Source: Spironucleus salmonicida (Eukaryota > Fornicata > Diplomonadida > Hexamitidae). Taken from it: DNA of 64,000 nucleotides. The notes below the pieces were generated by a model. The model saw only the letters and a program-made list of their open reading frames with translations. It was not told the DNA's origin and ran no database searches. Shown piece after piece: positions 1 through 51,278 of the stretch (positions within the stretch are counted from its first letter, which is position 1; each line of letters opens with the position of its first letter). The DNA is taken from positions 1,144,001 through 1,208,000 of the forward strand of contig CM035321.1 in NCBI GenBank assembly GCA_000497125.2, written 5' to 3'. The position numbers and the translations under genes are program-made.

Positions 1-119
1 ACTGTGCAACGTGGATGGGGGCTTCATAGGATGCACTTTAGAGTACTAAAAAGATTTAACTGCGTGCATTTGGAAGGAGATAGTATGTCCCATTTATTAT
101 ACACAGAAATCTTAAATTA

Positions 120-341
120 TCATTCGAGGAGCTTAGCCGCTTTTCTAGCCTGTGCGGAATCTAGTACGTCTAGAATCTGAGGACGATCGATATGCGCATA
201 TACAGGCGGGTGTGCCTATACTATACCTCTCTAGCTATGTTCCGCGGCGACGGCGGACTTTTAAGACTATTATGACAAGAAAACTTGGTTAAGGTTCTCA
301 ATCTGTGAGGCCTTGTAAATCTTTGCATTCACGTGTTCCAT
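120..341 (-). CDS. Hypothetical 73-residue protein, palindrome I left copy
   Basis: I do not recognise this protein. Read with TAA/TAG = Gln it runs from an ATG at 341 to a TGA at 120-122 and gives 73 residues, rich in Gln and Ala, ending in a helix-like, charged segment (ARKAAKLLE). It contains several TAG/TAA codons and so is invisible under the standard code. It is transcribed divergently from the xRRM gene, with 107 bp between the two start codons, and both sit in all four palindrome arms. Sequence identity between the palindromes ends just past its stop codon, so it marks the outer edge of the shared duplicated unit. Conservation of the open frame in four copies supports it; function unknown. 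Confidence 0.6.
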
Positions 342-448
342 TCGTGATCATGTGGCCCGTTTTATATAATAATCTCCACCCCGCTCTGTTAGTTCAATAT
401 TATATACACCACTCCACAAATTCTCCTCTCCTCTTTCACTTCCTCCAA
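342..448. promoter_or_regulatory. Bidirectional promoter region, 73-aa gene / xRRM gene
   Basis: These 107 bp separate two divergent start codons. They contain A+T-rich TATA-like runs (TTTTATATAATAAT near 360 and AATATTATATAC near 390) and a pyrimidine-rich stretch just before the xRRM ATG. The same block is present in all four arms (3449-3555, 6496-6602, 9604-9710). Assignment as a promoter is inferred from position and composition. Confidence 0.45.
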
Positions 449-1021
449 ATGGAATTTATTAAGGACCTCCTCCTTAGGATATCAGATATCGGCGTCATTG
501 GTGTCAATGATGGTGTATTTGACAGAGATTTCCGCCCTGACTCAGAGGATGTCAAGGATCAGCGTGTAACACGCGAGATTCTCAAAGAAGTGTTTGGAAA
601 GTTTGGTTTCATCAAGCATGTAGACTATGCCGCTGGTAAGACTGAGGCCGTGCTAAGGTTTTCTGAATAAGACGTTGATGCAACCAAGAACGTTATGGAA
701 GAGTTTGCCGAGACACCTCTTGTCCTTGGGCAGAATGAGGTTAAGTTGTCCATCGTCAGTGGTGACGAGGAAGCCGAAGTATATAAGAACATTAGAGAAA
801 GCTTTGCAAAACGTGGTGATAACCGTGGTGGATTCAATGGCGGTGACAGACGCGGAGGATATAATGACAGACGCGGTGGTGACAGAGATGGTGGTGATAG
901 ACGTGGCGGTTATAATGATAGGCGTGGTGGTGATAGGGACGGCGGCGACAGGCGTGGTGGATACGAGAAAAGAGATGGCGGTGATAGACGTGGCGGGTAT
1001 GAGAGGCGCGACTACAAGTGA
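449..1021 (+). CDS. La-type xRRM protein with RGG tail, palindrome I left copy
   Basis: A 190-residue predicted RNA-binding protein. The reading needs one in-frame TAA (668-670) as Gln; the frame then runs on to TGA at 1019-1021. Residues about 25-105 resemble the C-terminal xRRM of La-family proteins: a helix (EILKEVFGKFG), a strand pair (IKHVDYA.GKTEAVLRF), and a late strand followed by an acidic/basic helix. The remainder, about 115-190, is a Gly/Arg/Asp-rich tail built from RRGGYNDRRGGD-type units, typical of RGG boxes that bind RNA. No La motif (winged helix) precedes it, so it would be a stand-alone xRRM. Likely nuclear RNA or RNP binding; the RRM/RGG call is firm, the La kinship moderate. 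In palindrome I both copies have Asn at the TKNVM position, whereas palindrome II copies have Lys. Confidence 0.75.
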
Positions 1022-1055
1022 TATCTTTGATGCAGGGCTGTATAATTTAGGGACG

Positions 1056-1544
1056 ATGAAGTGAGTAAAATACTATTCATTTTAGTTTAGCGCAGAAAGG
1101 TTGTACGCGCATTCTTTGGGCACTACATCATTTCTCAATATCGAAAAGGTTGCTGCAGCTACGCATAAAACTTTGCCTTCGGATGAGTTTTATATGGCTC
1201 GGTTCTTGCAGCCCGTCCTCCTACTCAACAAAGCTCCCCTTCCTTACTTTATTGACCACGCGCCATTCGCTCTCAGCTGCTTCACGAACTTTATCTATAT
1301 CGGCGAGCCGCTATTGGAGTCGAATGTGAGGGATGATGTCCTGGGTGAAATCCCTGAACCTAAAAAATTGCAAGTGCTAGTGTTATATAAAATAACATTT
1401 AAATACATACTAATTATTAAAACACTTCTTACAAATCTTCAGATTTAACAAAAAAATGGTTATTTTAAAATATTTACAAGCAAAATCTTTATTGATAATG
1501 AAGTTTATATCAAGTTTTCATCTTTGAATGAATATTATTACTGA
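1056..1544 (+). CDS. Unknown gene cut by arm/spacer junction, copy 1 (possible intron)
   Basis: Not recognised. From base 1091 a reading frame encodes about 89 residues of well-composed protein (for example MARFLQPVLLLNK and PYFIDHAPF) up to the end of the palindrome arm at 1358, after which it runs into spacer DNA and stops at TGA 1542-1544. There is no ATG at the start of the open frame, but ATG AA at 1056-1060 followed by a 30-bp GTGAGT...TTTAG segment would splice in frame to give a protein beginning MNAERLYAHS, about 152 residues in all. The mirror copy at 2404-2841 has the same body but a different C terminus because the spacer is not symmetric. The true C terminus is therefore probably missing from both. 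Confidence 0.45.
1061..1090 (+). other. Candidate 30-bp spliceosomal intron
   Basis: The segment starts GTGAGT, ends TTTTAGTTTAG, and its removal joins ATGAA to CGCAGAAAGG in frame with the long downstream open frame; without removal the ATG runs straight into TGA. Ending at the following CGCAG instead would lose the frame. Very short introns are known in diplomonads, but a clear branch-point consensus is not visible here. Present in all four arms. Confidence 0.35.
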
Positions 1545-2538
1545 AATTTGGGAAAATACGGATAAAATATCATTAATATTATCAGTTTGAATTTAATTTC
1601 AGGATGTGCAATATTTTATTAATTTATGATAAGGTATTACATTCATAATTTAATGTAAAGCTATAGACGATTATTTCTAATCTATATTCATAGATCCATA
1701 AATAATTAAATTACACATCGTGGTAGCGCTTTAATCATTTTAAATCTGCTTGTTTTCGGATTTCGCAATTTTCAAGTTAAAGGTCTCGATTAAAAGTTTA
1801 TAATAATATTAACTGTTCACGAAAATCAAGTATTTGATCAATATATTCTTCACATTTAGTCATAAGATGTTATTTTTATGCTAGGAGATCAACTTTATCT
1901 AGTTCAAGTGTTAAAATTTTCTACCGAAGAAGCGTTAGTTCAGATAAACCCACTTCAGGTATGGAGTTTTACTTTACTTATTTTATTTCATCTGTATTTT
2001 ATTCTTTAAGTTCGCTAAGACGTTTTCTGAATAAGTTATTACATTAATTTAGGGACAGATTCATTTATACTAGCGAATTTTAAATTATTATATTATATTA
2101 TGTATAGTATAAATATATTTATATAAAATGTATAGAAAAGTTTTATATCTATAGTATTTAATCTACCATAGATTACTTCATTAATAGTTTAATTTATAAT
2201 TGATACCATTGGTGCTGTATTTACCGATCTAAAATATTACTATCATATTTAGTATATATCGGCGCGCTAAGATCAACTCTAATTATTAAATGAGAACCGT
2301 GATTAAACCAGTAAATAAACCACACATCTAAAAATATAGTGAGCAGTATTCGCATAAATCAACTCTCTTACCGTGCATGAAGAACAAATCTTTCTAGATG
2401 CCTTCATTACACGCAAGTTCCTTTAGTGTTCCGTAGGCATATCTTACTAAACCTGTCCGAAGCTTAATCCTGAGAAATGTATACCCAGAACAAACAGATT
2501 AAATTCCGGTATTAAAAAGATAGATATCTTAGATAAGC
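1359..2538. other. Palindrome I spacer
   Basis: A 1,180-bp A+T-rich stretch between the arms. It recurs in the same orientation and at the same length as the spacer of palindrome II (7514-8693). The arm-cut gene runs into it from both sides. One small open frame at 1878-2030 (ATG to TGA, 50 residues, beginning MLGDQLYLVQVLKFSTEEA) has protein-like composition and contains CAG/GTATGG, which could be an exon end; I cannot confirm it as a gene. Nothing else is recognisable. Confidence 0.6.
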
Positions 2539-2841
2539 TTCAGGGATTTCACCCAGGACATCATCCCTCACATTCGACTCCAATAGCGGCTCGCCGATAT
2601 AGATAAAGTTCGTGAAGCAGCTGAGAGCGAATGGCGCGTGGTCAATAAAGTAAGGAAGGGGAGCTTTGTTGAGTAGGAGGACGGGCTGCAAGAACCGAGC
2701 CATATAAAACTCATCCGAAGGCAAAGTTTTATGCGTAGCTGCAGCAACCTTTTCGATATTGAGAAATGATGTAGTGCCCAAAGAATGCGCGTACAACCTT
2801 TCTGCGCTAAACTAAAATGAATAGTATTTTACTCACTTCAT
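2404..2841 (-). CDS. Unknown gene cut by arm/spacer junction, copy 2
   Basis: Mirror of the gene starting at 1056: ATG at 2841, candidate intron 2807-2836, then the same body to the junction at 2539. Beyond it this copy reads ...GEIPEAYLRYLSF and on to TGA at 2404-2406, while copy 1 reads ...GEIPEPKKLQVL. The two copies thus share the same N-terminal part and carry unrelated C-terminal tails. Whether either is functional is unknown. Confidence 0.4.
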
Positions 2842-2875
2842 CGTCCCTAAATTATACAGCCCTGCATCAAAGATA

Positions 2876-3448
2876 TCACTTGTAGTCGCGCCTCTCATAC
2901 CCGCCACGTCTATCACCGCCATCTCTTTTCTCGTATCCACCACGCCTGTCGCCGCCGTCCCTATCACCACCACGCCTATCATTATAACCGCCACGTCTAT
3001 CACCACCATCTCTGTCACCACCGCGTCTGTCATTATATCCTCCGCGTCTGTCACCGCCATTGAATCCACCACGGTTATCACCACGTTTTGCAAAGCTTTC
3101 TCTAATGTTCTTATATACTTCGGCTTCCTCGTCACCACTGACGATGGACAACTTAACCTCATTCTGCCCAAGGACAAGAGGTGTCTCGGCAAACTCTTCC
3201 ATAACGTTCTTGGTTGCATCAACGTCTTATTCAGAAAACCTTAGCACGGCCTCAGTCTTACCAGCGGCATAGTCTACATGCTTGATGAAACCAAACTTTC
3301 CAAACACTTCTTTGAGAATCTCGCGTGTTACACGCTGATCCTTGACATCCTCTGAGTCAGGGCGGAAATCTCTGTCAAATACACCATCATTGACACCAAT
3401 GACGCCGATATCTGATATCCTAAGGAGGAGGTCCTTAATAAATTCCAT
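2876..3448 (-). CDS. La-type xRRM protein with RGG tail, palindrome I right copy
   Basis: Exact reverse-complement copy of 449-1021, encoding the same 190-residue xRRM/RGG protein with one TAA-encoded Gln. It faces its twin tail to tail across the spacer and carries the palindrome I variant (Asn in TKNVM). Confidence 0.75.
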
Positions 3449-3555
3449 TTGGAGGAAGTGAAAGAGGAGAGGAGAATTTGTGGAGTGGTGTATATAATAT
3501 TGAACTAACAGAGCGGGGTGGAGATTATTATATAAAACGGGCCACATGATCACGA

Positions 3556-3777
3556 ATGGAACACGTGAATGCAAAGATTTACAAGGCCTCACAGATTGAG
3601 AACCTTAACCAAGTTTTCTTGTCATAATAGTCTTAAAAGTCCGCCGTCGCCGCGGAACATAGCTAGAGAGGTATAGTATAGGCACACCCGCCTGTATATG
3701 CGCATATCGATCGTCCTCAGATTCTAGACGTACTAGATTCCGCACAGGCTAGAAAAGCGGCTAAGCTCCTCGAATGA
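3556..3777 (+). CDS. Hypothetical 73-residue protein, palindrome I right copy
   Basis: Mirror copy of 120-341, identical in sequence; ATG at 3556, TGA at 3775-3777. Divergent from the xRRM copy at 2876-3448. Confidence 0.6.
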
Positions 3778-3896
3778 TAATTTAAGATTTCTGTGTATAA
3801 TAAATGGGACATACTATCTCCTTCCAAATGCACGCAGTTAAATCTTTTTAGTACTCTAAAGTGCATCCTATGAAGCCCCCATCCACGTTGCACAGT

Positions 3897-5638
3897 TATT
3901 AGATATCTAATGACTTTGAATATGCACCGAATTTAGTATTACTGCCATATAAACATAATGTCATTATAGACTTTAATATCCCATCTTGTCCAAAATAGTA
4001 ACCAAACTATTATGTACACCGTAGTTTTCGAAAATATGAAACTTTAAAAGTTCCATAGTTCATGTTTATTGATTAAAATCAACTTATTCGCAAGGAATAA
4101 ATAGAATCTACCACTGTGTTTCGTGGAGCTCGAAGGACCCGTATGTGCCAATATTAGTAGGCATTATTAAATATCCAGATAAATGTAAACAAATGAACGA
4201 AATTTATCCTAATACGTTGTCTACTTTTTCATCATAATACGAATATTTCCAAATAAACCATTAGCTAATTAAAGTGTTTATGCCTATAATGAGTGAATAA
4301 TCTTTTTACATTTTGTATAGTATTTTTTAAAATTGTTACTGAAATATAAACACAAGGTGTAGTGTTATTGTATTTTTTTATTTTGTATCTTTTCAGGATA
4401 TTACTCAGTAGCAAATATCTGGGTTATTTATACTAAGAAATTGATATAATCTATATTAATAATGAATTTTGGCAATGAGTATTAAAGATAAGGTCAGGTT
4501 TTGGATGTAAAGTTTACAATTTGTTTGATATTTTAGACCATCACTAAGACTACAATAAACGGGTTTTGGAATTTTCTATTATTTATATAGCCGAATACGC
4601 TTGATTAATACATTTTCTAATTATCAATAAGGAATACAAATTATAAGTATCAGGTATCTTATGCTTTTCCAAATTATTAATATACTTTACTTTAAACGTT
4701 ACTAAATAATTTATCTATAGGAAAATTTAACAGTCTTAAGTTATGAGCGGTTATCACAAATAATAAGTCTAAATAATAACCATGTATTCAATTGCATATA
4801 ATAAATATGAGTATATGAACTAAATAAAATTACGATAGAGAAATAACTTTATTGTGCTCATTATGGAAAAAGTAGCAGGATTTTCGATATAGTTAGAAAT
4901 TAAATATATGGTTAAGTCGTTTGAGCGAATAAACTTCAAAATAACTAATATTCCTTTCTAGCAGTAAAAGATTCGTAACACTTATAGTTAATAATAGTAC
5001 CAGATAATTGATGTTATACTGTATGTTTAACACTAATATGTATGATGCCTTACAAAAATCAGAATAACTAGATCATTTTGGTATTATAAGTTTCTAACCT
5101 AGATAATTATTTAAAAATTATTAACATTTTAAAAAATATATTTATGGTAATGATTATTCAAAGATCAAACTTTACTTAGTTAGTATAAAATATTACATTA
5201 CTACATTTCTATATCATAACAAATCTTATATTTAAACTTGAAAATTATAAAACATAATCATGATTGACAGATAGGTCAATTTTAAAAGATTAATGAAAAT
5301 TAGAAGAAGACCTTCTTAAACAAAATAATATTTAGAATATATTTTAATTTATTCTGATTAGATACTATAAATTAGCTTATATAATAAATATCAATTAATG
5401 GCATCTAATTTTTAATATAATTTTAGTAATTTTTGCTAGTGCTCCTTATAATATCTATATAACTCTCTATGATAAAAGTTAAAAATCAAAATTCGGCGAA
5501 GTACTAACATTGATATGAATAAATTCATAATTAATTACTTAATATAATAACTATATATAGAAAATAGAGTACTCGTAACGGATAACTTAATAATTTAGAT
5601 GCTATACTTTACCTAAAATGATTTAAAATAAATTTAGT
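3897..5638. other. A+T-rich DNA between palindromes I and II
   Basis: About 1.7 kb of A+T-rich sequence. I see no open frame with convincing protein composition on either strand, no RNA gene and no terminal repeat. The outermost part of palindrome I's right arm (3778-3896) likewise shows no gene. Confidence 0.5.
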
Positions 5639-5733
5639 ATTATAACCCCCTAAACCTTACTAGAGTATGCAGTTTCCAACTTAATATTTAGCGGTTGGTG
5701 CGTTTGAAGCTTATCATAACTGAGCACAAAAGA

Positions 5734-6045
5734 TCATTTTATCACCAACTTGAGGCATTCAAGCTGTTGAATTTCAGACTAGATGTTATGTAGGGTATAG
5801 TCAGTCCTATCTTCACCTTATGAGATATCTTCCTTATTTAATGTATCTACCAGGAGCATTTAATTCATAGTCTGGCACAACCTGTTTGATGTGAGTTAAG
5901 ATGGGGTTTGTAAAGGAGGTATATGAGTACTAATTCCACAGTCGGGTATTTATTATAACTTTTACGGCAATACACATTATTTACGTTTATTTCTTTGATC
6001 ACTTGTGTGTTACCCCCTACGTCGTGCTAACGACATATCTCGCAT
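5734..6045 (-). CDS. Hypothetical 103-residue protein, palindrome II left copy
   Basis: Not recognised. With TAA/TAG = Gln, an ATG at 6045 opens a frame to TGA at 5734-5736. The product starts MRDMSLARRRGQ, is basic at its N terminus, and has a more acidic, helical C-terminal half (NIQSEIQQLECLKLVIK). A second in-frame ATG lies three codons downstream. Mirrored at 10161-10472. It sits in palindrome II's private outer arm and is absent from palindrome I. Confidence 0.5.
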
Positions 6046-6273
6046 TTGCTAAGATCAAATAATCTATAATTTTTATATATTAATGGTATATAAATATATT
6101 AAAGCTCTAAAAACCATAGAATATCAAACTCTCAGTGTTCAACAGAATAGATGAGAGAAATACGGATAGTGATTATTCATGAACATTGATCAATATAAAC
6201 CTCTATGTTGAAGAGACAGCAAAATATACTTTACAAAATTGATAATGAATGAGTATCAATATACCTGAAATTA

Positions 6274-6495
6274 TCATTCGAGGAGCTTAGCCGCTTTTCT
6301 AGCCTGTGCGGAATCTAGTACGTCTAGAATCTGAGGACGATCGATATGCGCATATACAGGCGGGTGTGCCTATACTATACCTCTCTAGCTATGTTCCGCG
6401 GCGACGGCGGACTTTTAAGACTATTATGACAAGAAAACTTGGTTAAGGTTCTCAATCTGTGAGGCCTTGTAAATCTTTGCATTCACGTGTTCCAT
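6274..6495 (-). CDS. Hypothetical 73-residue protein, palindrome II left copy
   Basis: Same 73-residue frame as at 120-341, divergent from the xRRM copy at 6603. Palindrome I and II sequences diverge immediately upstream of 6274 on the plus strand, right after this gene's stop codon. Confidence 0.6.
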
Positions 6496-6602
6496 TCGTG
6501 ATCATGTGGCCCGTTTTATATAATAATCTCCACCCCGCTCTGTTAGTTCAATATTATATACACCACTCCACAAATTCTCCTCTCCTCTTTCACTTCCTCC
6601 AA

Positions 6603-7175
6603 ATGGAATTTATTAAGGACCTCCTCCTTAGGATATCAGATATCGGCGTCATTGGTGTCAATGATGGTGTATTTGACAGAGATTTCCGCCCTGACTCAGA
6701 GGATGTCAAGGATCAGCGTGTAACACGCGAGATTCTCAAAGAAGTGTTTGGAAAGTTTGGTTTCATCAAGCATGTAGACTATGCCGCTGGTAAGACTGAG
6801 GCCGTGCTAAGGTTTTCTGAATAAGACGTTGATGCAACCAAGAAGGTTATGGAAGAGTTTGCCGAGACACCTCTTGTCCTTGGGCAGAATGAGGTTAAGT
6901 TGTCCATCGTCAGTGGTGACGAGGAAGCCGAAGTATATAAGAACATTAGAGAAAGCTTTGCAAAACGTGGTGATAACCGTGGTGGATTCAATGGCGGTGA
7001 CAGACGCGGAGGATATAATGACAGACGCGGTGGTGACAGAGATGGTGGTGATAGACGTGGCGGTTATAATGATAGGCGTGGTGGTGATAGGGACGGCGGC
7101 GACAGGCGTGGTGGATACGAGAAAAGAGATGGCGGTGATAGACGTGGCGGGTATGAGAGGCGCGACTACAAGTGA
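6603..7175 (+). CDS. La-type xRRM protein with RGG tail, palindrome II left copy
   Basis: Same 190-residue protein as 449-1021 except that the codon after TK is AAG (Lys) rather than AAC (Asn). The mirror copy in this palindrome has the same Lys, so arms within a palindrome match each other better than they match the other palindrome. Confidence 0.75.
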
Positions 7176-7209
7176 TATCTTTGATGCAGGGCTGTATAAT
7201 TTAGGGACG

Positions 7210-7699
7210 ATGAAGTGAGTAAAATACTATTCATTTTAGTTTAGCGCAGAAAGGTTGTACGCGCATTCTTTGGGGCACTACATCATTTCTCAATATCGAA
7301 AAGGTTGCTGCAGCTACGCATAAAACTTTGCCTTCGGATGAGTTTTATATGGCTCGGTTCTTGCAGCCCGTCCTCCTACTCAACAAAGCTCCCCTTCCTT
7401 ACTTTATTGACCACGCGCCATTCGCTCTCAGCTGCTTCACGAACTTTATCTATATCGGCGAGCCGCTATTGGAGTCGAATGTGAGGGATGATGTCCTGGG
7501 TGAAATCCCTGAACCTAAAAAATTGCAAGTGCTAGTGTTATATAAAATAACATTTAAATACATACTAATTATTAAAACACTTCTTACAAATCTTCAGATT
7601 TAACAAAAAAATGGTTATTTTAAAATATTTACAAGCAAAATCTTTATTGATAATGAAGTTTATATCAAGTTTTCATCTTTGAATGAATATTATTACTGA
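7210..7699 (+). pseudogene. Arm/spacer-cut gene, copy 3, frameshifted by +1 G
   Basis: Same locus as 1056-1544, but the run reads TTTGGGGCAC here instead of TTTGGGCAC in the other three copies. The added G shifts the frame soon after the candidate intron, so a full-length product cannot be made unless translation begins downstream. This is the only asymmetric change seen between the arms of palindrome II. Confidence 0.6.
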
Positions 7700-8693
7700 A
7701 ATTTGGGAAAATACGGATAAAATATCATTAATATTATCAGTTTGAATTTAATTTCAGGATGTGCAATATTTTATTAATTTATGATAAGGTATTACATTCA
7801 TAATTTAATGTAAAGCTATAGACGATTATTTCTAATCTATATTCATAGATCCATAAATAATTAAATTACACATCGTGGTAGCGCTTTAATCATTTTAAAT
7901 CTGCTTGTTTTCGGATTTCGCAATTTTCAAGTTAAAGGTCTCGATTAAAAGTTTATAATAATATTAACTGTTCACGAAAATCAAGTATTTGATCAATATA
8001 TTCTTCACATTTAGTCATAAGATGTTATTTTTATGCTAGGAGATCAACTTTATCTAGTTCAAGTGTTAAAATTTTCTACCGAAGAAGCGTTAGTTCAGAT
8101 AAACCCACTTCAGGTATGGAGTTTTACTTTACTTATTTTATTTCATCTGTATTTTATTCTTTAAGTTCGCTAAGACGTTTTCTGAATAAGTTATTACATT
8201 AATTTAGGGACAGATTCATTTATACTAGCGAATTTTAAATTATTATATTATATTATGTATAGTATAAATATATTTATATAAAATGTATAGAAAAGTTTTA
8301 TATCTATAGTATTTAATCTACCATAGATTACTTCATTAATAGTTTAATTTATAATTGATACCATTGGTGCTGTATTTACCGATCTAAAATATTACTATCA
8401 TATTTAGTATATATCGGCGCGCTAAGATCAACTCTAATTATTAAATGAGAACCGTGATTAAACCAGTAAATAAACCACACATCTAAAAATATAGTGAGCA
8501 GTATTCGCATAAATCAACTCTCTTACCGTGCATGAAGAACAAATCTTTCTAGATGCCTTCATTACACGCAAGTTCCTTTAGTGTTCCGTAGGCATATCTT
8601 ACTAAACCTGTCCGAAGCTTAATCCTGAGAAATGTATACCCAGAACAAACAGATTAAATTCCGGTATTAAAAAGATAGATATCTTAGATAAGC
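7514..8693. other. Palindrome II spacer
   Basis: Second copy of the 1,180-bp spacer at 1359-2538, same orientation. The small candidate frame recurs at 8033-8185. No other gene seen. Confidence 0.6.
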
Positions 8694-8996
8694 TTCAGGG
8701 ATTTCACCCAGGACATCATCCCTCACATTCGACTCCAATAGCGGCTCGCCGATATAGATAAAGTTCGTGAAGCAGCTGAGAGCGAATGGCGCGTGGTCAA
8801 TAAAGTAAGGAAGGGGAGCTTTGTTGAGTAGGAGGACGGGCTGCAAGAACCGAGCCATATAAAACTCATCCGAAGGCAAAGTTTTATGCGTAGCTGCAGC
8901 AACCTTTTCGATATTGAGAAATGATGTAGTGCCCAAAGAATGCGCGTACAACCTTTCTGCGCTAAACTAAAATGAATAGTATTTTACTCACTTCAT
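8559..8996 (-). CDS. Unknown gene cut by arm/spacer junction, copy 4
   Basis: Right-arm copy without the extra G: ATG at 8996, candidate intron 8962-8991, body to the junction at 8694, then the spacer-derived tail to TGA at 8559-8561, as in copy 2. Confidence 0.4.
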
Positions 8997-9030
8997 CGTC
9001 CCTAAATTATACAGCCCTGCATCAAAGATA

Positions 9031-9603
9031 TCACTTGTAGTCGCGCCTCTCATACCCGCCACGTCTATCACCGCCATCTCTTTTCTCGTATCCACCACGC
9101 CTGTCGCCGCCGTCCCTATCACCACCACGCCTATCATTATAACCGCCACGTCTATCACCACCATCTCTGTCACCACCGCGTCTGTCATTATATCCTCCGC
9201 GTCTGTCACCGCCATTGAATCCACCACGGTTATCACCACGTTTTGCAAAGCTTTCTCTAATGTTCTTATATACTTCGGCTTCCTCGTCACCACTGACGAT
9301 GGACAACTTAACCTCATTCTGCCCAAGGACAAGAGGTGTCTCGGCAAACTCTTCCATAACCTTCTTGGTTGCATCAACGTCTTATTCAGAAAACCTTAGC
9401 ACGGCCTCAGTCTTACCAGCGGCATAGTCTACATGCTTGATGAAACCAAACTTTCCAAACACTTCTTTGAGAATCTCGCGTGTTACACGCTGATCCTTGA
9501 CATCCTCTGAGTCAGGGCGGAAATCTCTGTCAAATACACCATCATTGACACCAATGACGCCGATATCTGATATCCTAAGGAGGAGGTCCTTAATAAATTC
9601 CAT
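9031..9603 (-). CDS. La-type xRRM protein with RGG tail, palindrome II right copy
   Basis: Reverse-complement twin of 6603-7175, also with Lys in TKKVM. Encodes the 190-residue xRRM/RGG protein. Confidence 0.75.
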
Positions 9604-9710
9604 TTGGAGGAAGTGAAAGAGGAGAGGAGAATTTGTGGAGTGGTGTATATAATATTGAACTAACAGAGCGGGGTGGAGATTATTATATAAAACGGGCCAC
9701 ATGATCACGA

Positions 9711-9932
9711 ATGGAACACGTGAATGCAAAGATTTACAAGGCCTCACAGATTGAGAACCTTAACCAAGTTTTCTTGTCATAATAGTCTTAAAAGTCCGCC
9801 GTCGCCGCGGAACATAGCTAGAGAGGTATAGTATAGGCACACCCGCCTGTATATGCGCATATCGATCGTCCTCAGATTCTAGACGTACTAGATTCCGCAC
9901 AGGCTAGAAAAGCGGCTAAGCTCCTCGAATGA
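9711..9932 (+). CDS. Hypothetical 73-residue protein, palindrome II right copy
   Basis: Fourth copy of the 73-residue frame (TGA at 9930-9932), divergent from the xRRM copy at 9031-9603. Confidence 0.6.
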
Positions 9933-10160
9933 TAATTTCAGGTATATTGATACTCATTCATTATCAATTTTGTAAAGTATATTTTGCTGTCTCTTCAACA
10001 TAGAGGTTTATATTGATCAATGTTCATGAATAATCACTATCCGTATTTCTCTCATCTATTCTGTTGAACACTGAGAGTTTGATATTCTATGGTTTTTAGA
10101 GCTTTAATATATTTATATACCATTAATATATAAAAATTATAGATTATTTGATCTTAGCAA

Positions 10161-10472
10161 ATGCGAGATATGTCGTTAGCACGACGTAGGGGGTAACACA
10201 CAAGTGATCAAAGAAATAAACGTAAATAATGTGTATTGCCGTAAAAGTTATAATAAATACCCGACTGTGGAATTAGTACTCATATACCTCCTTTACAAAC
10301 CCCATCTTAACTCACATCAAACAGGTTGTGCCAGACTATGAATTAAATGCTCCTGGTAGATACATTAAATAAGGAAGATATCTCATAAGGTGAAGATAGG
10401 ACTGACTATACCCTACATAACATCTAGTCTGAAATTCAACAGCTTGAATGCCTCAAGTTGGTGATAAAATGA
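10161..10472 (+). CDS. Hypothetical 103-residue protein, palindrome II right copy
   Basis: Mirror of 5734-6045. ATG at 10161, TGA at 10470-10472. Several internal TAA/TAG codons are read as Gln. Basic N terminus, no membrane segment, function unknown. Palindrome II ends about 95 bp beyond its stop. Confidence 0.5.
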
Positions 10473-10679
10473 TCTTTTGTGCTCAGTTATGATAAGCTTC
10501 AAACGCACCAACCGCTAAATATTAAGTTGGAAACTGCATACTCTAGTAAGGTTTAGGGGGTTATAATGTTCACTTTTTATGATTTGTATTAATTGTTTGG
10601 TTTTAAATTTTATCTTATAGAGATTTAATATATTAAAGTTTCCTCAATTTTATTTACTTCCAATTTACCATTTCATAAA

Positions 10680-11036
10680 ATGACCAGGCAGGTGATGCGG
10701 TTCCAATTACAGTAGCTGGGTGACGAGCTGGAGATAGCGCGTATAGAAGTTTAGGAGGGCAAGGATGCCCAGATGGGGTCTGTGCTGCTGAAGGAGATTA
10801 GGATGCTGCAGGCGAGACTGGAGCTGCTGGACGCGAGGGCTGCAGAGGAAGGTATGTAGGTGGCAGCAGCATTGGAGGTCCAGAAGCGCACGGTATTGCG
10901 CATGGTTGGCTCGAGGGAGGCGCATCTCGCCGGAGAAAAGCGAGACGCGGCGGAGCGTGTAGCCACAGCTAAGCGCAGGGTCCAGGAACTCGGGGCGGCG
11001 CGTGAGGAGCTTCGCGGTCGCATCAGAGGCCTCTGA
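10680..11036 (+). CDS. Coiled-coil protein, 118 residues
   Basis: ATG at 10680, TGA at 11034-11036, with in-frame TAG codons read as Gln. The product (start MTRQVMRFQLQ, end RGRIRGL) is almost entirely helical with heptad-like spacing of Leu/Ile/Met and many Arg, Glu and Ala, so a coiled coil is likely. The sequence is clearly G+C-richer than the flanking intergenic DNA. It lies in the 468 bp between palindromes II and III, and palindrome III begins exactly at the last base of its stop codon. It is single copy here. It could be the surviving C-terminal part of a longer gene, though the ATG is well placed. Function unknown. Confidence 0.6.
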
Positions 11037-11060
11037 GTAATTCATCTAATTCCACTCCTA

Positions 11061-11354
11061 ATGCAGTTCAAGTTTACGTCGGCTGAGACGGGCTTCACGG
11101 CGAGCGTGACAAAGGAGATCTCGTCGATCGCGCAGCTGTTCGAGATCGCCGGGGAGGCCATGGGGATCGCGGGCGAGTTCATCCTCCAGACGCCAGAGTA
11201 CCGCCTGGGGAAGGACGATCGCGTGAAGTTCCCGCAGCTGCAGCCGGAGAACGAGTACAAGCACTTTCTGGTGGTCCCGACCGGTGGAAGACAGCCGGCG
11301 CTTTAGGCGACGCTGGTGGACGTGGACCCAAGCGGGGGTGCGGAGGAAGTGTGA
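11061..11354 (+). CDS. Ubiquitin-like small protein with C-terminal extension, copy 1
   Basis: A 97-residue protein. It begins MQFKF, and the order strand (QFKFTSAET) - strand (FTASVT) - helix (SIAQLFEIAGEAM) - strand (GEFILQTP) - strand (KHFLVV) follows the ubiquitin beta-grasp order. Residues 75-76 are Gly-Gly, exactly ubiquitin's processing position, and a 21-residue tail follows (RQPALQATLVDV...), including one TAG-encoded Gln. Sequence identity to ubiquitin is low, so this is a fold-level inference. If correct it would be a precursor needing cleavage after GG to act as a protein modifier, or a UBL domain protein that is never conjugated. In frame +2 a second open frame overlaps its 3' end and leads into the next gene. 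Duplicated at 14841-15134. Confidence 0.5.
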
Positions 11355-11383
11355 TTGTATATGTCGGCACTCGCTTCCTCAAA

Positions 11384-11899
11384 ATGAACAACATCGAAAC
11401 TGCGTACCTGCGCAGCAAAAAGCGCCTAGGGGGCCACCCCTGCCGCCTCGTCCTGGACCGCAGAATATGCGAGTCCCAGCTGTCGACCTCCAGATAGCTG
11501 GCCGCAGTACGGGAAAGCCGTGACCGCATAGCTCGAATGCCGTCGCCCCCACCTGATAGCGCTCCAGTCAACGAGCTGCAGTAGTTCTGGGCCCGCTAGG
11601 CCAAAACGGCAAGACTTTAGAATGAAATGACGCAGAGAAATGTCAGAGATGTCGAAATCGTCAACCAAAACGAGAAATAGATTGAAACCTACTATGCATT
11701 CGAACAGATAGAGACGGTGCGCCGGCGTCCACTAAGATAACGATTACCTGACGATATTTGGGATCTTACGTAAGAAATAAAGAGAGTGACTAAAGTAGAT
11801 GAATGGTTGGAGAGCGTACTTCTAGGCCGAATTGCAGTACAAACAATGCAGCTGCGAAGGATGCGGCGGGAATTGACCTACGGTTTTGATTTTGAATGA
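11384..11899 (+). CDS. Coiled-coil protein, 171 residues, copy 1
   Basis: Starts 29 bp after the ubiquitin-like gene on the same strand; ATG at 11384, TGA at 11897-11899. The product (start MNNIETAYLRSKKRLGG) has a basic N-terminal third and a long charged, Gln-rich helical C-terminal part (for example EIVNQNEKQIETYYAFEQIE) consistent with a coiled coil. Eight or more TAA/TAG codons are read as Gln. The frame stays open upstream of the ATG into the 3' end of the previous gene, reading VYVGTRFLK before the Met, so an earlier start or a frameshift link to the upstream gene cannot be excluded. Function unknown. Confidence 0.6.
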
Positions 11900-11909
11900 A
11901 ATATAATTA

Positions 11910-12095
11910 TTATATAAAATATTCTTGTGATTTCAATTTAAAATCCGACCACCACTTCTCTATTTCGGCTCTTTGATATCCTGGACCCTGGACCGTTCCA
12001 GCTTCTGTAGAAATCTCTGAGACAATGAGAAGGCCCGTTTGCTTACCAGCTTTAGATTTTGCAGTCTGAGCTGAGTCGGGTTTGAATATTTTCAA
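11910..12095 (-). CDS. Uncertain 61-residue frame downstream of kinase, copy 1
   Basis: A frame of strongly coding-like composition (PDSAQTAKSKAGKQTG, ending WWSDFKLKSQEYFI) with no ATG; its apparent start is TTG. It is in the same frame as the kinase upstream on this strand, and no TGA occurs between the kinase stop and this block. Read with TAA = Gln it would continue beneath the convergent 171-residue gene. It may be the tail of a longer ancestral product or an exon whose start I cannot find. Confidence 0.3.
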   Translation of the reverse strand: MKIFKPDSAQTAKSKAGKQTGLLIVSEISTEAGTVQGPGYQRAEIEKWWSDFKLKSQEYFI

Positions 12096-12281
12096 TTATT
12101 TTTTAACGTCATTTAGGTAGTGACTATATAACAAAGAACATTTTAGACAATAATATTTAGTCGTGTTTAACAAACAGCAGATGTATGCAAATGCATTTTC
12201 TTAGTGTTAGTTAATATTTAAGTTTTAAATTAATATTGTAATGGAAGCATGCAATACTAATTTAAGAATAAACTTATCGAA

Positions 12282-12917
12282 TCACTCTGCTAAGCAAGTT
12301 TTTGCAGATTCATATATATTATAAATAGTGCTAGTTGATCCAAACATGGTCCAGTCTACATTATAAACTCTGCAGCCCATTCCCTTAAGCTACTATACTA
12401 ATATTTTATAACATGCATCAAGTCCTTCTAAATATTCAACTTAAATGTTCATCTCGTAATCACGTTTTCTTATATTTTTTATTCTATAAAGGCAAGTTTC
12501 TGGCGAGACATCAAGATAAACTACTGCGGTTGGAAGAGGAATCTTAGAGACAATATCATTGTATTTAATTAAGTATTAATCAAACTAGTTCTATGATATG
12601 AAACCATCTTAAAACGCTAATCTCGCAAATACGGAATCTGAGAACACACTTCTATCTAATATAACTATATTATTCGGTTATTCAATAGCTATCTAGCATG
12701 CATGTTTATAGTGTTGTATTCTTTGTTCTAAAAACCACATTTAGAATTCAAAGGACCATTTTTTAGGGTCTTCATAGAACTTTGCCAAATAAGGGTTATC
12801 GGTAACGGGTTCCTCTAACGCATATAAATTGTACTCATTAGCTAAATTATGCAGTAATGATGTTTTACCGGCTGCTATACCACCCTCAAGAATCAAAAGA
12901 TTAGGCAGGGAATTCAT
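12282..12917 (-). CDS. Deoxynucleoside kinase, copy 1
   Basis: Reverse-complement twin of 13278-13913 with identical coding content; ATG at 12917, TGA at 12282-12284. See that entry for motifs. The two copies are divergent around the 116-bp palindrome centre, with 360 bp between their start codons. Confidence 0.88.
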
Positions 12918-13277
12918 TATATAAAGGAGAGGTGAATTGAAATTTTGGTTATATTATATATTTAATATGTATCTACATTTTCACCCGGGAAATACAACTG
13001 AAGGATTCTATCTTTATTTATTGAACCTAATCAAATATATCTTTAATACTATTATTACAACAGAGTTACTAAAATCCAATTTGTATAATAGTGTCATACT
13101 TTTATTATTTGAAAAAAAATAGAAATCATCGATTTGATGTATTTAATTTAATTTTTATATTTGATTAGGTTCAATAAATAAAGATAGAATCCTTCAGTTG
13201 TATTTCCCGGGTGAAAATGTAGATACATATTAAATATATAATATAACCAAAATTTCAATTCACCTCTCCTTTATATA

Positions 13278-13913
13278 ATGAATTCCCTGCCTAATCTTTT
13301 GATTCTTGAGGGTGGTATAGCAGCCGGTAAAACATCATTACTGCATAATTTAGCTAATGAGTACAATTTATATGCGTTAGAGGAACCCGTTACCGATAAC
13401 CCTTATTTGGCAAAGTTCTATGAAGACCCTAAAAAATGGTCCTTTGAATTCTAAATGTGGTTTTTAGAACAAAGAATACAACACTATAAACATGCATGCT
13501 AGATAGCTATTGAATAACCGAATAATATAGTTATATTAGATAGAAGTGTGTTCTCAGATTCCGTATTTGCGAGATTAGCGTTTTAAGATGGTTTCATATC
13601 ATAGAACTAGTTTGATTAATACTTAATTAAATACAATGATATTGTCTCTAAGATTCCTCTTCCAACCGCAGTAGTTTATCTTGATGTCTCGCCAGAAACT
13701 TGCCTTTATAGAATAAAAAATATAAGAAAACGTGATTACGAGATGAACATTTAAGTTGAATATTTAGAAGGACTTGATGCATGTTATAAAATATTAGTAT
13801 AGTAGCTTAAGGGAATGGGCTGCAGAGTTTATAATGTAGACTGGACCATGTTTGGATCAACTAGCACTATTTATAATATATATGAATCTGCAAAAACTTG
13901 CTTAGCAGAGTGA
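13278..13913 (+). CDS. Deoxynucleoside kinase, copy 2
   Basis: A 211-residue kinase that would phosphorylate deoxynucleosides with ATP in the salvage pathway, expected in the cytosol. Visible motifs: P-loop GGIAAGKTS at residues 12-20, the substrate-site stretch QMWFLEQRI near residue 60, the DRS motif at 88-90, and an arginine-rich lid (R145, R150, R152 before DYE). The Gln of QMWFLEQ is written TAA, a good internal proof of the code because this position is conserved in the family. Length matches the dNK/dGK/dCK family. Which base is preferred cannot be told. A+T-rich TATA-like sequence lies about 50 bp upstream, with a pyrimidine-rich stretch before the ATG. It exists twice in perfect mirror image. 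Confidence 0.9.
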
Positions 13914-14099
13914 TTCGATAAGTTTATTCTTAAATTAGTATTGCATGCTTCCATTACAATATTAATTTAAAACTTAAATATTAACTAACACTAAGAAAAT
14001 GCATTTGCATACATCTGCTGTTTGTTAAACACGACTAAATATTATTGTCTAAAATGTTCTTTGTTATATAGTCACTACCTAAATGACGTTAAAAAATAA

Positions 14100-14285
14100 T
14101 TGAAAATATTCAAACCCGACTCAGCTCAGACTGCAAAATCTAAAGCTGGTAAGCAAACGGGCCTTCTCATTGTCTCAGAGATTTCTACAGAAGCTGGAAC
14201 GGTCCAGGGTCCAGGATATCAAAGAGCCGAAATAGAGAAGTGGTGGTCGGATTTTAAATTGAAATCACAAGAATATTTTATATAA
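14100..14285 (+). CDS. Uncertain 61-residue frame downstream of kinase, copy 2
   Basis: Mirror of 11910-12095. The frame follows the kinase stop (13911-13913) in register for about 200 codons without a further TGA, but only 14100-14285 has convincing protein composition. No ATG. Confidence 0.3.
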   Translation: MKIFKPDSAQTAKSKAGKQTGLLIVSEISTEAGTVQGPGYQRAEIEKWWSDFKLKSQEYFI

Positions 14286-14295
14286 TAATTATATT

Positions 14296-14811
14296 TCATT
14301 CAAAATCAAAACCGTAGGTCAATTCCCGCCGCATCCTTCGCAGCTGCATTGTTTGTACTGCAATTCGGCCTAGAAGTACGCTCTCCAACCATTCATCTAC
14401 TTTAGTCACTCTCTTTATTTCTTACGTAAGATCCCAAATATCGTCAGGTAATCGTTATCTTAGTGGACGCCGGCGCACCGTCTCTATCTGTTCGAATGCA
14501 TAGTAGGTTTCAATCTATTTCTCGTTTTGGTTGACGATTTCGACATCTCTGACATTTCTCTGCGTCATTTCATTCTAAAGTCTTGCCGTTTTGGCCTAGC
14601 GGGCCCAGAACTACTGCAGCTCGTTGACTGGAGCGCTATCAGGTGGGGGCGACGGCATTCGAGCTATGCGGTCACGGCTTTCCCGTACTGCGGCCAGCTA
14701 TCTGGAGGTCGACAGCTGGGACTCGCATATTCTGCGGTCCAGGACGAGGCGGCAGGGGTGGCCCCCTAGGCGCTTTTTGCTGCGCAGGTACGCAGTTTCG
14801 ATGTTGTTCAT
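14296..14811 (-). CDS. Coiled-coil protein, 171 residues, copy 2
   Basis: Mirror copy of 11384-11899 in the right arm of palindrome III; ATG at 14811, TGA at 14296-14298. It lies downstream of the second ubiquitin-like gene on the minus strand. Confidence 0.6.
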
Positions 14812-14840
14812 TTTGAGGAAGCGAGTGCCGACATATACAA

Positions 14841-15134
14841 TCACACTTCCTCCGCACCCCCGCTTGGGTCCACGTCCACCAGCGTCGCCTAAAGCGCCGG
14901 CTGTCTTCCACCGGTCGGGACCACCAGAAAGTGCTTGTACTCGTTCTCCGGCTGCAGCTGCGGGAACTTCACGCGATCGTCCTTCCCCAGGCGGTACTCT
15001 GGCGTCTGGAGGATGAACTCGCCCGCGATCCCCATGGCCTCCCCGGCGATCTCGAACAGCTGCGCGATCGACGAGATCTCCTTTGTCACGCTCGCCGTGA
15101 AGCCCGTCTCAGCCGACGTAAACTTGAACTGCAT
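14841..15134 (-). CDS. Ubiquitin-like small protein with C-terminal extension, copy 2
   Basis: Mirror copy of 11061-11354 (ATG at 15134, TGA at 14841-14843), with Gly-Gly again at 75-76 and the same tail. Confidence 0.5.
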
Positions 15135-15189
15135 TAGGAGTGGAATTAGATGAATTACTTAAATGCCTCTAATATGAATTTAACCTGCT

Positions 15190-22637: not shown

Positions 22638-26432
<3,795 letters not shown>

Positions 26433-26640
26433 CCCCCCTCCCTCCCCAACTCGGCTCGCACTGAACTTCACCCTTCCAATTTCTGACTAAATTTCCATTT
26501 CTCCAAATCACGTTAGTCCATTTTTCTCAAAAAAGTAAAAATTAAAAATAAATAAAATAAAAATAAAATAAAAATAAAATAAAAATAAATAAAATAAAAT
26601 AAAAAAATAAAATTAAAATTTCAATGTCAATTCAATTTCA
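26433..26640. repeat. C-rich then A-rich low-complexity tract
   Basis: The microsatellite is followed by a short C-rich run and then, at about 26530-26620, irregular AAATAAAAT-type repeats leading to the 3' end of the minus-strand gene at 26661. Confidence 0.8.
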
Positions 26641-26660
26641 ACTTTCCACTCCAAAAACCC

Positions 26661-27902
26661 TCACTCGTAATCCTCCATATCCAGCGCAAAAAAGTCGTCT
26701 TCGTAGTCTTAGCTGACCTCTAAATCGGCCAGGACGTTCTGCTCCCTCTTGACGTTTTTGAGGGCCAGGAGCCGCTGCGCGTCGACGCGTTTGAGGACGC
26801 TTTTGAGCTCCTTTCTGGGCTTGTTGGAGCCGTAGAATTCTCCGTTTTGGCCCAAAAGTACGGTATTTTCCCGGACGTTCAGGTCGTCGGCGTGCACGAA
26901 ATTCTCGAAAAACGCGAGGGGGACCTGGCTGTAAACGGTCTTCGCGAGGTGCATTTTGAGCTGAAACTGGAAAATTCTGGTGAAAAACTGCCTGCAGATG
27001 TAGAAGAGGCCCTCGGGCTTCAAAAGGGGCGTTTGGGCGTCGAATTCGGCGCGCAAATCGGCTAGGCTGATTTTGTTTTGTAAGAATTCCAAATTGCAAC
27101 TTTGGGTATATTATATGATATTATTGATAAATATATCAATTTCATTTTTCTACGGTAAACTTGAAACTTTCTCAAAATTAAGTAATTATATTAATGTTTT
27201 TATTCGCTCCACTTTCACGTCTTCGCTGTCGCTTTTGATCTGTCTCAAAAATTGACTGGCGGCCTCGATTTGGCCCAAATTTGCGTGCAGGACGCCCAAA
27301 ATCAGGTACATTTCAGGCTGAATTTCGAGCGTTTTCTGCAGCAAAAATAGCTGATTTCGCTGTTTTTTGTAGAATTCGAACGCCTCGAAAAGCTTGAAAT
27401 CGGCCAGAAAGTGCTGCAAAACGGCCTAAAACAGCACCAGGAACAGCTGGTTCGGCTGCGTCGACGAGATGCTGAAGTACTGCAAAATTATCGCCTGCAC
27501 GTTCGACGCGGCGCGCAAAACGGCGATCAGCGCCGCCCTGTCCAGCGTGTGCTGCGCGCGGCTCAGGAACAGGTACGAAACGGCGTGGAAATGGTGTTTC
27601 AGGGACGAGATTTTGACGAGCGCGATGAGCGCGATTTTGACCGAAAAATCGTCCAGGTTCGTGAGCTGCAGGTGCGCCTCGAACGTTTTCAGGTTCTGCT
27701 GCTGCAGGTCGAAATCTGGGGAGTTGGTTAACGTGATCAAAAGCGGCTAAATGAACACTAGGAGCTGGGTCGAAAGTTGGTCTTTTTGGAGCTTCTGGAT
27801 CAGGTCAGTATCTATCAGCTTGTAGATTTTGTTAACTGACGTTTCGTCTTTGATTTAGAGCGATATCTGCGCGATCAAATCGAGCGCGTTCGGCTGCGTC
27901 AT
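26661..27902 (-). CDS. All-helical protein, 413 residues
   Basis: ATG at 27902, TGA at 26661-26663; the apparent fragments all share one frame through TAA/TAG codons. Nearly all alpha-helical by composition (SVKIALIALVKISSLKHHFHA; FLADFKLFEAFEFYKKQRNQ; MYLILGVLHANLGQIEAASQ), the last resembling a TPR-like helix pair. A C-terminal region near 300-350 (GLFYICRQFFTRIFQFQ) precedes a basic stretch and an acidic tail ending DMEDYE. This could be a TPR/PCI-type subunit of a multiprotein complex, but no diagnostic motif is present and I leave it unnamed. The coding DNA is G+C-rich except for an A+T-rich in-frame patch at about 27100-27200. Divergent from 27962. Confidence 0.7.
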
Positions 27903-50232: not shown

Positions 50233-50402
50233 TGAGTGGTTTCTTAAATTATACTTTTTTAAGTGTATAAATATATTAATTTACAAAAACTCGTAAAAAA
50301 ATAATATTGATAGATATTAGTATTAGTAGTAAATATGTTCGTGTAGAAATACTCACGATCATGTATTATCTATTAAATAATCATTTTAAATATTTGCCTT
50401 AA

Positions 50403-51278
50403 ATGACCCAGTCTACATGTTCTCTCAACCAGAACACATGCATTTCAAACACCCTGTGCAGTGCAACCCCCACAAGTCCCAATGATTAGTTATGTATATC
50501 ATGTGTAGAAAATCTATCACTAAGCATCGATTGCAACTGCAGAGATGGAACACCTTATGAAGGATGCTAAATTTGCTAAAATAGCACCTGCAGTCAGTGC
50601 AGAAAAGGATATTTCGCGTATGGAGATATATGCTAAGCATGCTCTTCTGGTTGTACCGATTGTGATAATAGCAGTTGTAAAGCCTGCAGCGATGGTCTTG
50701 TGCCAATTGATGTTTTCTGCGCTCCGACACAATGCAGAAATAAAGCAGACTGCAGAAACGAAAAACTTTTTTGCATAGAAGGCAAATGTAGGCAATGTTC
50801 AGTAGCCTGCGCTACGTGCGACTCCGATATGTACTGTGATAGGTGTACTCCAGGATTCTACCTATCAATCTTGGGAAAATGTGTTTAGACCTGCTTTCAG
50901 CACCCATTACAAGGGTAATTTTGTGATGATGGTACTGTTAAATCTTGCTATAGTGGTCAGTAGCGATAGTGTGAGTGTGGCGAGGCGGATAATTGTGAGT
51001 TCTGCAATAGTGACTTTTCATAATGTAGCTATTGCCTGATAGGCTTTAAAATGTAGTCTGATAAATGTGTTCAATGTGCGGATGGATACAAGAAGATTGG
51101 GACACTCTGTTTAAAAACTCATGATATAGATATTTAAGCTAAAAGTGGGATGTCTATAGGTTTTATCATTGGTATTGTGATGGCAATATTATGTGGTGTT
51201 TTGGGTGTACTTGGTGTTATGGTGTTCTTGTATTTCCAGAAGAAAAAGGGTTTGGTTGGGGAAGGCTATCATTAATGA
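50403..51278 (+). CDS. Cysteine-rich membrane protein (VSP/CRMP-like)
   Basis: A 291-residue type I-like surface protein, ATG at 50403, TGA at 51276-51278. About 40 Cys in residues 5-230 occur as CxxC and CxC pairs (CQACSSGCTDCDN, CSQCRKGYF, CATCDSDMYCDRC, CEFCNSDFSQCSYC), as in diplomonad variant-specific surface proteins and cysteine-rich membrane proteins. One C-terminal membrane segment (IGFIIGIVMAILCGVLGVLG) follows, then a short basic tail KKKGLVGEGYHQ. No signal peptide is evident; an in-frame ATG at 50361 adds 14 residues but no hydrophobic core. The true 5' end may be missing or the start misjudged. Function: cell surface, possibly antigenic variation or protection. Confidence 0.85.

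What the first reader, a model, noticed from the sequence alone, without database searches (positions are those of the whole stretch)
1..15159. Three consecutive gene-bearing palindromes in 15 kb
Palindromes I, II and III (arms about 1.36+, 1.87 and 2.00 kb; spacers 1,180, 1,180 and 116 bp) lie next to one another and together present every carried gene as mirror-image pairs. They carry intact genes, not transposase, so they look like a mode of gene duplication or maintenance (foldback amplification, hairpin end resolution or palindrome-based copy control) rather than ordinary insertion sequences. Positions and symmetry are read directly; the mechanism is inference.
Basis: partly seen in the sequence, partly recalled or inferred. 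Interest (0 to 1): 0.8.

Follow-up and report, generated by a model that had tools for sequence, protein, structure and literature searches.

The report
Mirror-image gene duplications in a diplomonad
A stretch of chromosome in the salmon parasite Spironucleus salmonicida is built from mirror-image DNA blocks that carry ordinary genes in near-perfect duplicate, probably kept alike by recombination between the two halves.

Summary
The palindromes are real in the assembly. The window is C6:1144001-1208000 of Spironucleus salmonicida, which reads TAA/TAG as glutamine. Arms are 1,361+, 1,878/1,877 and 2,018 bp; spacers 1,174, 1,174 and 116 bp.

I and II are not separate: they belong to one 14.5-kb array starting 3.9 kb left of the window. 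Five copies of an RRM_3 gene alternate in orientation on a 6,155-bp period. Nor are the three alone: the surrounding 264 kb holds nine inverted-duplication loci, eight of them within 154 kb. Cargo is ordinary: deoxynucleoside kinase, Fcf2, tRNA-Leu, tRNA-Glu. A 100-kb sample of C1 had none; score-matched inverted gene pairs occur on C2, C3, C5 and C7.

Best explanation: inverted segmental duplications exchanging sequence by homologous recombination. In the array one 2,478-bp spacer is exactly inverted relative to its sister while the 1,174-bp spacers are not, so at least one exchange occurred between arms. A published survey finds no end joining in parasitic diplomonads. No transposase domain turned up in the ORFs tested. 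It works like Y/X palindromes; G. muris has identical inverted VSP pairs.

The parts
1..1361 (+). Palindrome I left arm as far as the window shows it; the true mirror arm runs left to C6:1140384 (4,978 bp). Unit copy A2 is 111-1361.
1362..2535 (.). Spacer S1, 1,174 nt, GC 0.256; centre of the 4,978-bp-arm palindrome; identical to S2 in the same orientation
2536..3896 (-). Palindrome I right arm (unit copy A3 2536-3786); mirror arm continues to 7513
3787..6264 (.). Spacer G', 2,478 nt, exact reverse complement of the spacer G at C6:1141633-1144110
5639..7516 (+). Palindrome II left arm (unit copy A4 6265-7516)
7517..8690 (.). Spacer S2, 1,174 nt, same sequence and orientation as S1
8691..10567 (-). 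Palindrome II right arm (unit copy A5 8691-9941 plus part of G); right end of the array
449..1021 (+). RRM_3 + RGG-tail gene, 190 aa, copy A2
2876..3448 (-). RRM_3 gene, copy A3
6603..7175 (+). RRM_3 gene, copy A4
9031..9603 (-). RRM_3 gene, copy A5
11022..13039 (+). Palindrome III left arm
13040..13155 (.). Palindrome III spacer, 116 nt, GC 0.181, between the 5' ends of the two dNK genes
13156..15173 (-). Palindrome III right arm
12282..12917 (-). Deoxynucleoside kinase (PF01712), 211 aa, divergent copy 1
13278..13913 (+). Deoxynucleoside kinase, divergent copy 2, DNA identical to copy 1 over 636 bp
11384..11899 (+). 171-aa ORF without a significant Pfam match, mirrored at 14296-14811 (-)

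Best explanation
These are inverted segmental duplications in a diplomonad chromosome. Shown: near-identical mirror arms carrying intact ordinary genes, AT-rich spacers unlike the arms, a cluster of nine such loci in 264 kb, and one array in which spacer orientations conflict. Inferred: the copies arose by inverted template switching or fold-back during break repair or replication, and afterwards the two arms exchange sequence by homologous recombination. Non-crossover exchange (gene conversion) keeps arms alike; crossover flips the spacer, as seen for G versus G'. The organism would lean on this because classical and alternative end joining appear to be absent in parasitic diplomonads.
For: (1) Arms are identical along long stretches, genes and the rest alike: 2,004 bp in III, 1,878 bp in P6, 2,671 bp in P1. 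(2) The array reads: partial S, A1-, G, A2+, S, A3-, G', A4+, S, A5-, partial G. G' is the exact reverse complement of G (2,478 bp), while S1 and S2 are identical in the same orientation. Read as a tandem array, G is flipped; read as a fold-back, S2 is flipped. Either way at least one exchange took place between A units. The G-side flanks and the one coding difference group A1=A4=A5 versus A2=A3. (3) Mismatches between arms are clustered in P2, P3 and P5 (0 of 2,000 shuffles as clumped), as conversion tracts would give; nested duplications of different age could give it too. (4) Cargo differs between loci: dNK, RRM_3, Fcf2, tRNA-Leu, tRNA-Glu; genome searches with the I/II unit, the III arm and the P6 arm each found only their own locus. 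(5) PMC8516963, section 8 read: metamonads lack the NHEJ proteins, alternative end joining seems absent in parasitic diplomonads, HR including break-induced replication is retained. (6) Arms are richer in GC than their spacers in 10 of 10 comparisons from 9 loci, the direction expected of GC-biased conversion.
Against: Identity alone does not separate conversion from youth; no outgroup was available. Mismatches were not clustered in P4 or P9, and I, II and P6 have too few to test. GC enrichment is confounded: published coding DNA averages 36.2% against 25.4% intergenic, duplicated DNA is GC-rich in general, and the dNK gene inside III is AT-rich (GC3 0.29). The homopolymer indel (A1 and A4 against A2, A3, A5) does not follow the simple inversion pattern. 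Inverted versus direct duplications: 9 to 3 locally and 5 to 1 elsewhere; neither is significant alone (p 0.15, 0.22), pooled after the fact 14 to 4, p 0.03. A mis-oriented G in the assembly would imitate the inversion.
Confidence: 0.68

Rival explanations
1. The palindromes are simply young inverted duplications with no conversion between arms; the high identity reflects age alone.
For: Arms of I, II, III, P1, P4, P6 and P9 are 99.4-100% identical. Published heterozygosity is only 0.09% (table in PMC9509377).
Against: Clustered mismatches in P2, P3 and P5 and the conflicting spacer orientation in the array need recombination, or repeated nested duplication, at some point.
Confidence: 0.2
2. 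Assembly products: PacBio fold-back reads or uncollapsed haplotypes joined head to head.
For: The assembly rests on PacBio RS II reads. The rotifer Adineta vaga is the recalled precedent for artefactual palindromes; PMC12448946 (passages) names uncollapsed haplotypes as a possible cause when it tests its own palindromes.
Against: Missing-adapter fold-backs have no spacer (recalled); here spacers of 116-1,174 nt are present and unlike the arms. The palindromes lie inside a 1.67-Mb contig with unlike outer flanks. Arms of P2, P3 and P5 differ by 1.3-2.2%. Mean read length is about 9.7 kb (2.6 Gb / 267,495 reads), longer than III (4.2 kb) or II (4.9 kb). The 14.5-kb array is less safe. The authors report inspecting pile-ups at their two largest duplications, not here.
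Confidence: 0.08
3. A mobile element: fold-back transposon or paired insertion sequences.
For: Long terminal inverted repeats around a spacer. A RepeatMasker survey counts 29 DNA transposons in S. salmonicida (PMC11787283, passages). A 1.5-kb piece of the P3 arm has diverged relatives on C2 and C5 (66-89% identity), and a P5 protein has relatives on C3 and C7.
Against: The I/II unit, III arm and P6 arm were found only at their own loci; no transposase domain in 16 ORFs here and 10 from P1-P3, P5 and P6; the longest shared direct word in the 28-bp outer flanks was 3-5 bp at the 5 loci with exact boundaries (P1, P4, P6, III, P9); arms carry dNK, Fcf2 and tRNA genes.
Confidence: 0.03
4. Hairpin-end or copy-control elements, or sites of amplicon formation as in Leishmania.
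For: Inverted repeats seed linear amplicons in Leishmania (PMC4256157, abstract).
Against: No telomere-like repeats in the 264 kb; no coverage data available to show amplification.
Confidence: 0.03

Closest known systems
Gene-conversion palindromes of mammalian Y and X chromosomes (PMC8981503, abstract)
   Same: Mirror arms with genes, high arm identity, GC-richer arms
   Different: Here in a unicellular diplomonad, 0.5-13-kb arms, ordinary genes, three loci only 97.8-98.7% identical; conversion not demonstrated
Identical inverted VSP gene pairs of Giardia muris (PMC7641422, passages)
   Same: A diplomonad with identical gene pairs head-to-head or tail-to-tail (7 pairs) around intervening genes
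   Different: Those are surface-antigen genes; here housekeeping-type genes and tRNAs, clustered
Palindromes of the parthenogenetic springtail Folsomia candida (PMC5490193, passages)
   Same: 11 of 15 linked duplicated blocks are palindromes
   Different: That paper found a wide Ks range and argued against concerted evolution; here the small arms are nearly identical
Duplicated regions of the S. salmonicida reference genome (PMC9509377; section 15 part 1 of 3, section 22 and passages seen)
   Same: The same genome: 2.7 Mb (19.2%) duplicated at >=2 kb and >=95%, GC 44.7% against 30.7%
   Different: Main text has no word starting 'invert' or 'palindrom'; the orientation of duplications is not described in the parts I saw
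ODIRA and related inverted amplification (search listing only)
   Same: Inverted copies made by template switching
   Different: Its inverted triplication was not seen at III or P6, which have two copies each

Membership tests
Y/X-type gene-conversion palindrome | Inverted arms of high identity (>99%) with a short unique spacer | tested here: met
   Met by I, II, III and P1 (99.8-100%, spacers 116-1,174 nt). P4, P6 and P9 have the identity but spacers of 3.0-8.9 kb. P2, P3, P5 fail on identity (97.8-98.7%)
Y/X-type gene-conversion palindrome | Intact genes in both arms | tested here: met
   dNK, RRM_3, Fcf2, tRNA-Leu
Y/X-type gene-conversion palindrome | Ongoing arm-to-arm conversion (arms closer to each other than to orthologues) | not testable with these tools
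   No related genome held; clustered mismatches in 3 loci only
Y/X-type gene-conversion palindrome | GC-richer arms than surroundings | tested here: inconclusive
   Arms 0.451 against 0.322; confounded with coding content and gene class
Fold-back transposon / insertion sequence | Transposase, dispersed copies, target-site duplication | tested here: not met
   I/II, III, P6. P3 and P5 pieces do have diverged relatives elsewhere
Hairpin chromosome end | Lies at a DNA end | tested here: not met
   Internal, 1.14 Mb into a 1.67-Mb contig
ODIRA-type amplification | Inverted triplication (three copies, middle one inverted) | tested here: not met
   III and P6 have two copies each; the RRM_3 array has five

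The most novel reading that the evidence does not exclude
In diplomonads, which seem to have no end joining, inverted duplication followed by arm-to-arm recombination is a main mode of gene duplication and upkeep. Housekeeping genes and tRNAs would be stored as self-templating palindromes on many chromosomes, spacers would flip by crossover, and GC-biased conversion would turn the arms into the GC-rich islands of an AT-rich genome.
Probability: 0.3. Interest if true: 0.68.

Novelty: new member of a known kind. Interest (0 to 1): 0.47.

Why it matters
If true, a compact protist with no detected end joining would give a unicellular model for how palindromes form, flip and homogenise, a question studied so far mainly on mammalian sex chromosomes (recalled). 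The deposited PacBio and Illumina alignments would make it directly testable. It would also offer a cause for the GC-rich duplicated fraction that the genome paper reports.

Tried and rejected
Transposon reading: rejected for I/II, III and P6 (no transposase among 16 ORFs in and beside the palindromes; no target-site duplication at the 5 loci with exact ends; arms confined to their loci). In one search the rows for P2 and II used coordinates inside the arms and are discarded. For P3 and P5, pieces have diverged relatives on other contigs, so a mobile origin there is not closed. Hairpin ends: rejected.

I and II as independent palindromes: rejected.

The first whole-query search was not scored because it had too many letters for one answer; smaller queries were used instead. 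PF13306 gave no match. The RRM_3 homologue search scored only the 7,994 candidates sharing most words and found the window's own protein plus two weak ribosomal-S3-like hits at 3.7e-4 and 6.1e-4, so the 2014 assembly could not serve as a check for that gene; for dNK it gave V6LTK8, whose last residues differ. The Hexamita inflata paper has no word starting 'palindrom' or 'inverted' in its main text.

Literature: 'diplomonad' + 'palindrom' (11 papers), 'Spironucleus' + 'inverted repeat' (4 papers) and five-term searches listed no paper whose title or abstract start describes such palindromes in Spironucleus; listings only, apart from passages cited. Simion 2021 was not held.

Rows dropped before counts: the local 9:3 counts loci P1-P6, array, III, P9 as inverted and 1083707/1103751, 1091013/1102862 and the array's 6,155-bp period as direct. 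It leaves out tandem arrays at 994001-1002295 and 1184256-1191376, the 889-bp repeats nested in P2, extra copies of P5 pieces in either orientation, and the low-complexity pair 1031421/1098559. The 36% arm share counts spacer S2 with the array's arm, an excess of 1,174 bases. The elsewhere count of 5:1 uses score-matched pairs only, by script for 129 kinase rows and by eye for 68 Ank_2, 27 Ras and 10 protein rows; their DNA was not read, and the tool calls its counts lower bounds. In one search, 109 of 129 kinase matches served as singles (8 pair members and 12 low scorers left out; the C7/C17 cross-contig pair stayed in). Inverted-pair members had 0-1.09 TAA per 100 codons against a median of 3.1, one-sided p 0.006 with one member of each of 3 pairs, but 19% of singles are as low and the one direct pair is near (1.41).
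Full report
What the window is. It lies at C6:1144001-1208000 of a 14.47-Mb, 37-contig genome. Long ORFs appear if TAA and TAG are read as glutamine (41 ORFs of 250 aa or more with code 6, overlapping frames included; 2 of 200 aa or more with code 1), the hexamitid code. The dNK protein of palindrome III matches V6LTK8 of Spironucleus salmonicida at 100% over 70% of its length, so the organism is almost certainly S. salmonicida (reference genome PMC9509377).

The observation. In III, four mismatches in the outermost 14 bp are followed by 2,004 identical bases. The dNK gene pair (PF01712, E 9e-43) is divergent, its two starts facing each other across the 116-nt centre, with 636 identical bases. 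A diverged dNK-like match (31% identity) lies elsewhere on C6. The I/II gene is an RRM_3 protein with an RGG tail (E 1.2e-14; the tail is seen in the sequence).

I and II are one array. The gene unit A was found five times, all between C6:1140492 and 1153752, as -,+,-,+,-, with matching copies 6,154-6,155 bp apart. The order is: partial S, A1-, G, A2+, S, A3-, G', A4+, S, A5-, partial G. S1 and S2 are identical and in the same orientation (1,174 bp); G' is the exact reverse complement of G (2,478 bp); C6:1140384-1145361 mirrors 1146536-1151513 with one mismatch. If the array began as tandem repeats, G was flipped; if as a fold-back, S2 was flipped. Both need an exchange inside the A units. The G-side flanks group A1, A4, A5 against A2, A3, and so does the one coding difference (N or K at residue 81). 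One homopolymer indel groups A1, A4 against A2, A3, A5 and needs an extra change. Replication-type template switching between A units would leave the same pattern.

The neighbourhood. Joined with 200 kb of fetched flanks, the 264 kb holds nine inverted-duplication loci: P1 1005292-1010781 (arms 2,671, identical, spacer 148, tRNA-Leu pair); P2 (7.7 kb, 98.3%, spacer 1.9 kb, tRNA-Glu x4); P3 (13.0 kb, 98.7%, spacer 8.8 kb); P4 (530 bp, 99.4%, spacer 3.0 kb); P5 (11.4 kb, 97.8%, spacer 22.5 kb); P6 (1,878 bp, identical, Fcf2 gene, with a kinesin-like ORF recognised by eye in the spacer); the I/II array; III; and P9 (2,170 bp, 99.7%, spacer 8.9 kb). Eight lie in 154 kb. Arms cover 95,839 of 264,000 bases, spacer S2 counted with them. 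P3, P5 and P9 are better called inverted repeats with long spacers than palindromes. tRNA calls are (9 of 30 loci scanned), domains (2 of 10 proteins matched Pfam: Fcf2 and a kinase that straddles the outer end of P5). C1:400001-500000 had none, so density is regional. Score-matched inverted gene pairs elsewhere: C5 (kinase, 26 kb apart), C2 (kinase, 6.7 kb), C3 (kinase, 4.9 kb), C3 (Ank_2, 20 kb), C7 (390-aa family, 17 kb); one direct pair on C4. Their DNA could not be fetched (C2 and C3 asked for). Pieces of P3 and P5 have diverged relatives on other contigs; the I/II unit, III and P6 do not show any.

Is it an artefact? Against: asymmetric spacers unlike the arms, unlike outer flanks, arms with real divergence in three loci, and mean reads of about 9.7 kb that exceed II and III (figures). 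The authors report checking pile-ups at the two largest duplications. No read data could be opened here, so the 14.5-kb array's copy number and G' orientation rest on the assembler.

How it works. Creation by inverted template switching or fold-back is inferred; no junction homology of note was seen at the five loci with exact ends. Exchange between arms is supported by the array's conflicting spacer orientation and by clustered mismatches in P2, P3 and P5 (0 of 2,000 shuffles as clumped; not clumped in P4 or P9; III's four sit at one end; I, II and P6 have 0-2 differences). The published repair survey (PMC8516963, section 8 read) finds no NHEJ proteins in metamonads and no alternative end joining in parasitic diplomonads, with homologous recombination retained; that makes a nearby mirror copy a plausible repair template.

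GC. Arms have GC 0.451, the rest without tandem arrays 0.322, the C1 sample 0.301; arms exceed spacers in 10 of 10 comparisons from 9 loci. Biased conversion predicts this, as in primate X palindromes (PMC8981503, abstract). But coding DNA is richer in GC anyway (PMC3916229, passages), duplicated DNA as a whole is GC-rich, and dNK in III is AT-rich. I treat it as consistent, not as proof.

What is known. The genome paper reports the duplicated fraction; its main text has no word starting with 'invert' or 'palindrom'. G. muris has seven identical VSP pairs head-to-head or tail-to-tail. Folsomia candida has 11 palindromes, with the authors arguing against concerted evolution there. So the kind is known; its extent in S. 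salmonicida and its use for ordinary genes appear not to be in print as far as the searches go, which cover open-licence papers only.

Noticed in passing
40021-47727 (-): A 2,568-aa ORF made of about thirteen 546-bp tandem repeats 99.8-100% alike, with SHIPPO/PG-rich repeats (PF07004), GC about 0.6 in an AT-rich setting: strong homogenisation in direct repeats too.
   Followed up: partly
50229-51278 (+): Cysteine-rich membrane-protein-like ORF of 349 aa without a Pfam match; resembles the CRMP families of S. salmonicida by eye.
   Followed up: no
C6:994001-1002295 (L015): At least 8.3 kb of a short-period (about 22-bp, judged from alignment offsets) tandem array left of the palindrome cluster.
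   Followed up: no
C17, C23, C24, C27 of G000: Small contigs carry genes that score identically to genes on C7, C1, C3 and C6: unplaced duplicates or haplotypes.
   Followed up: no
25582-26964 (+): Long INQS simple repeat in an ORF.
   Followed up: no
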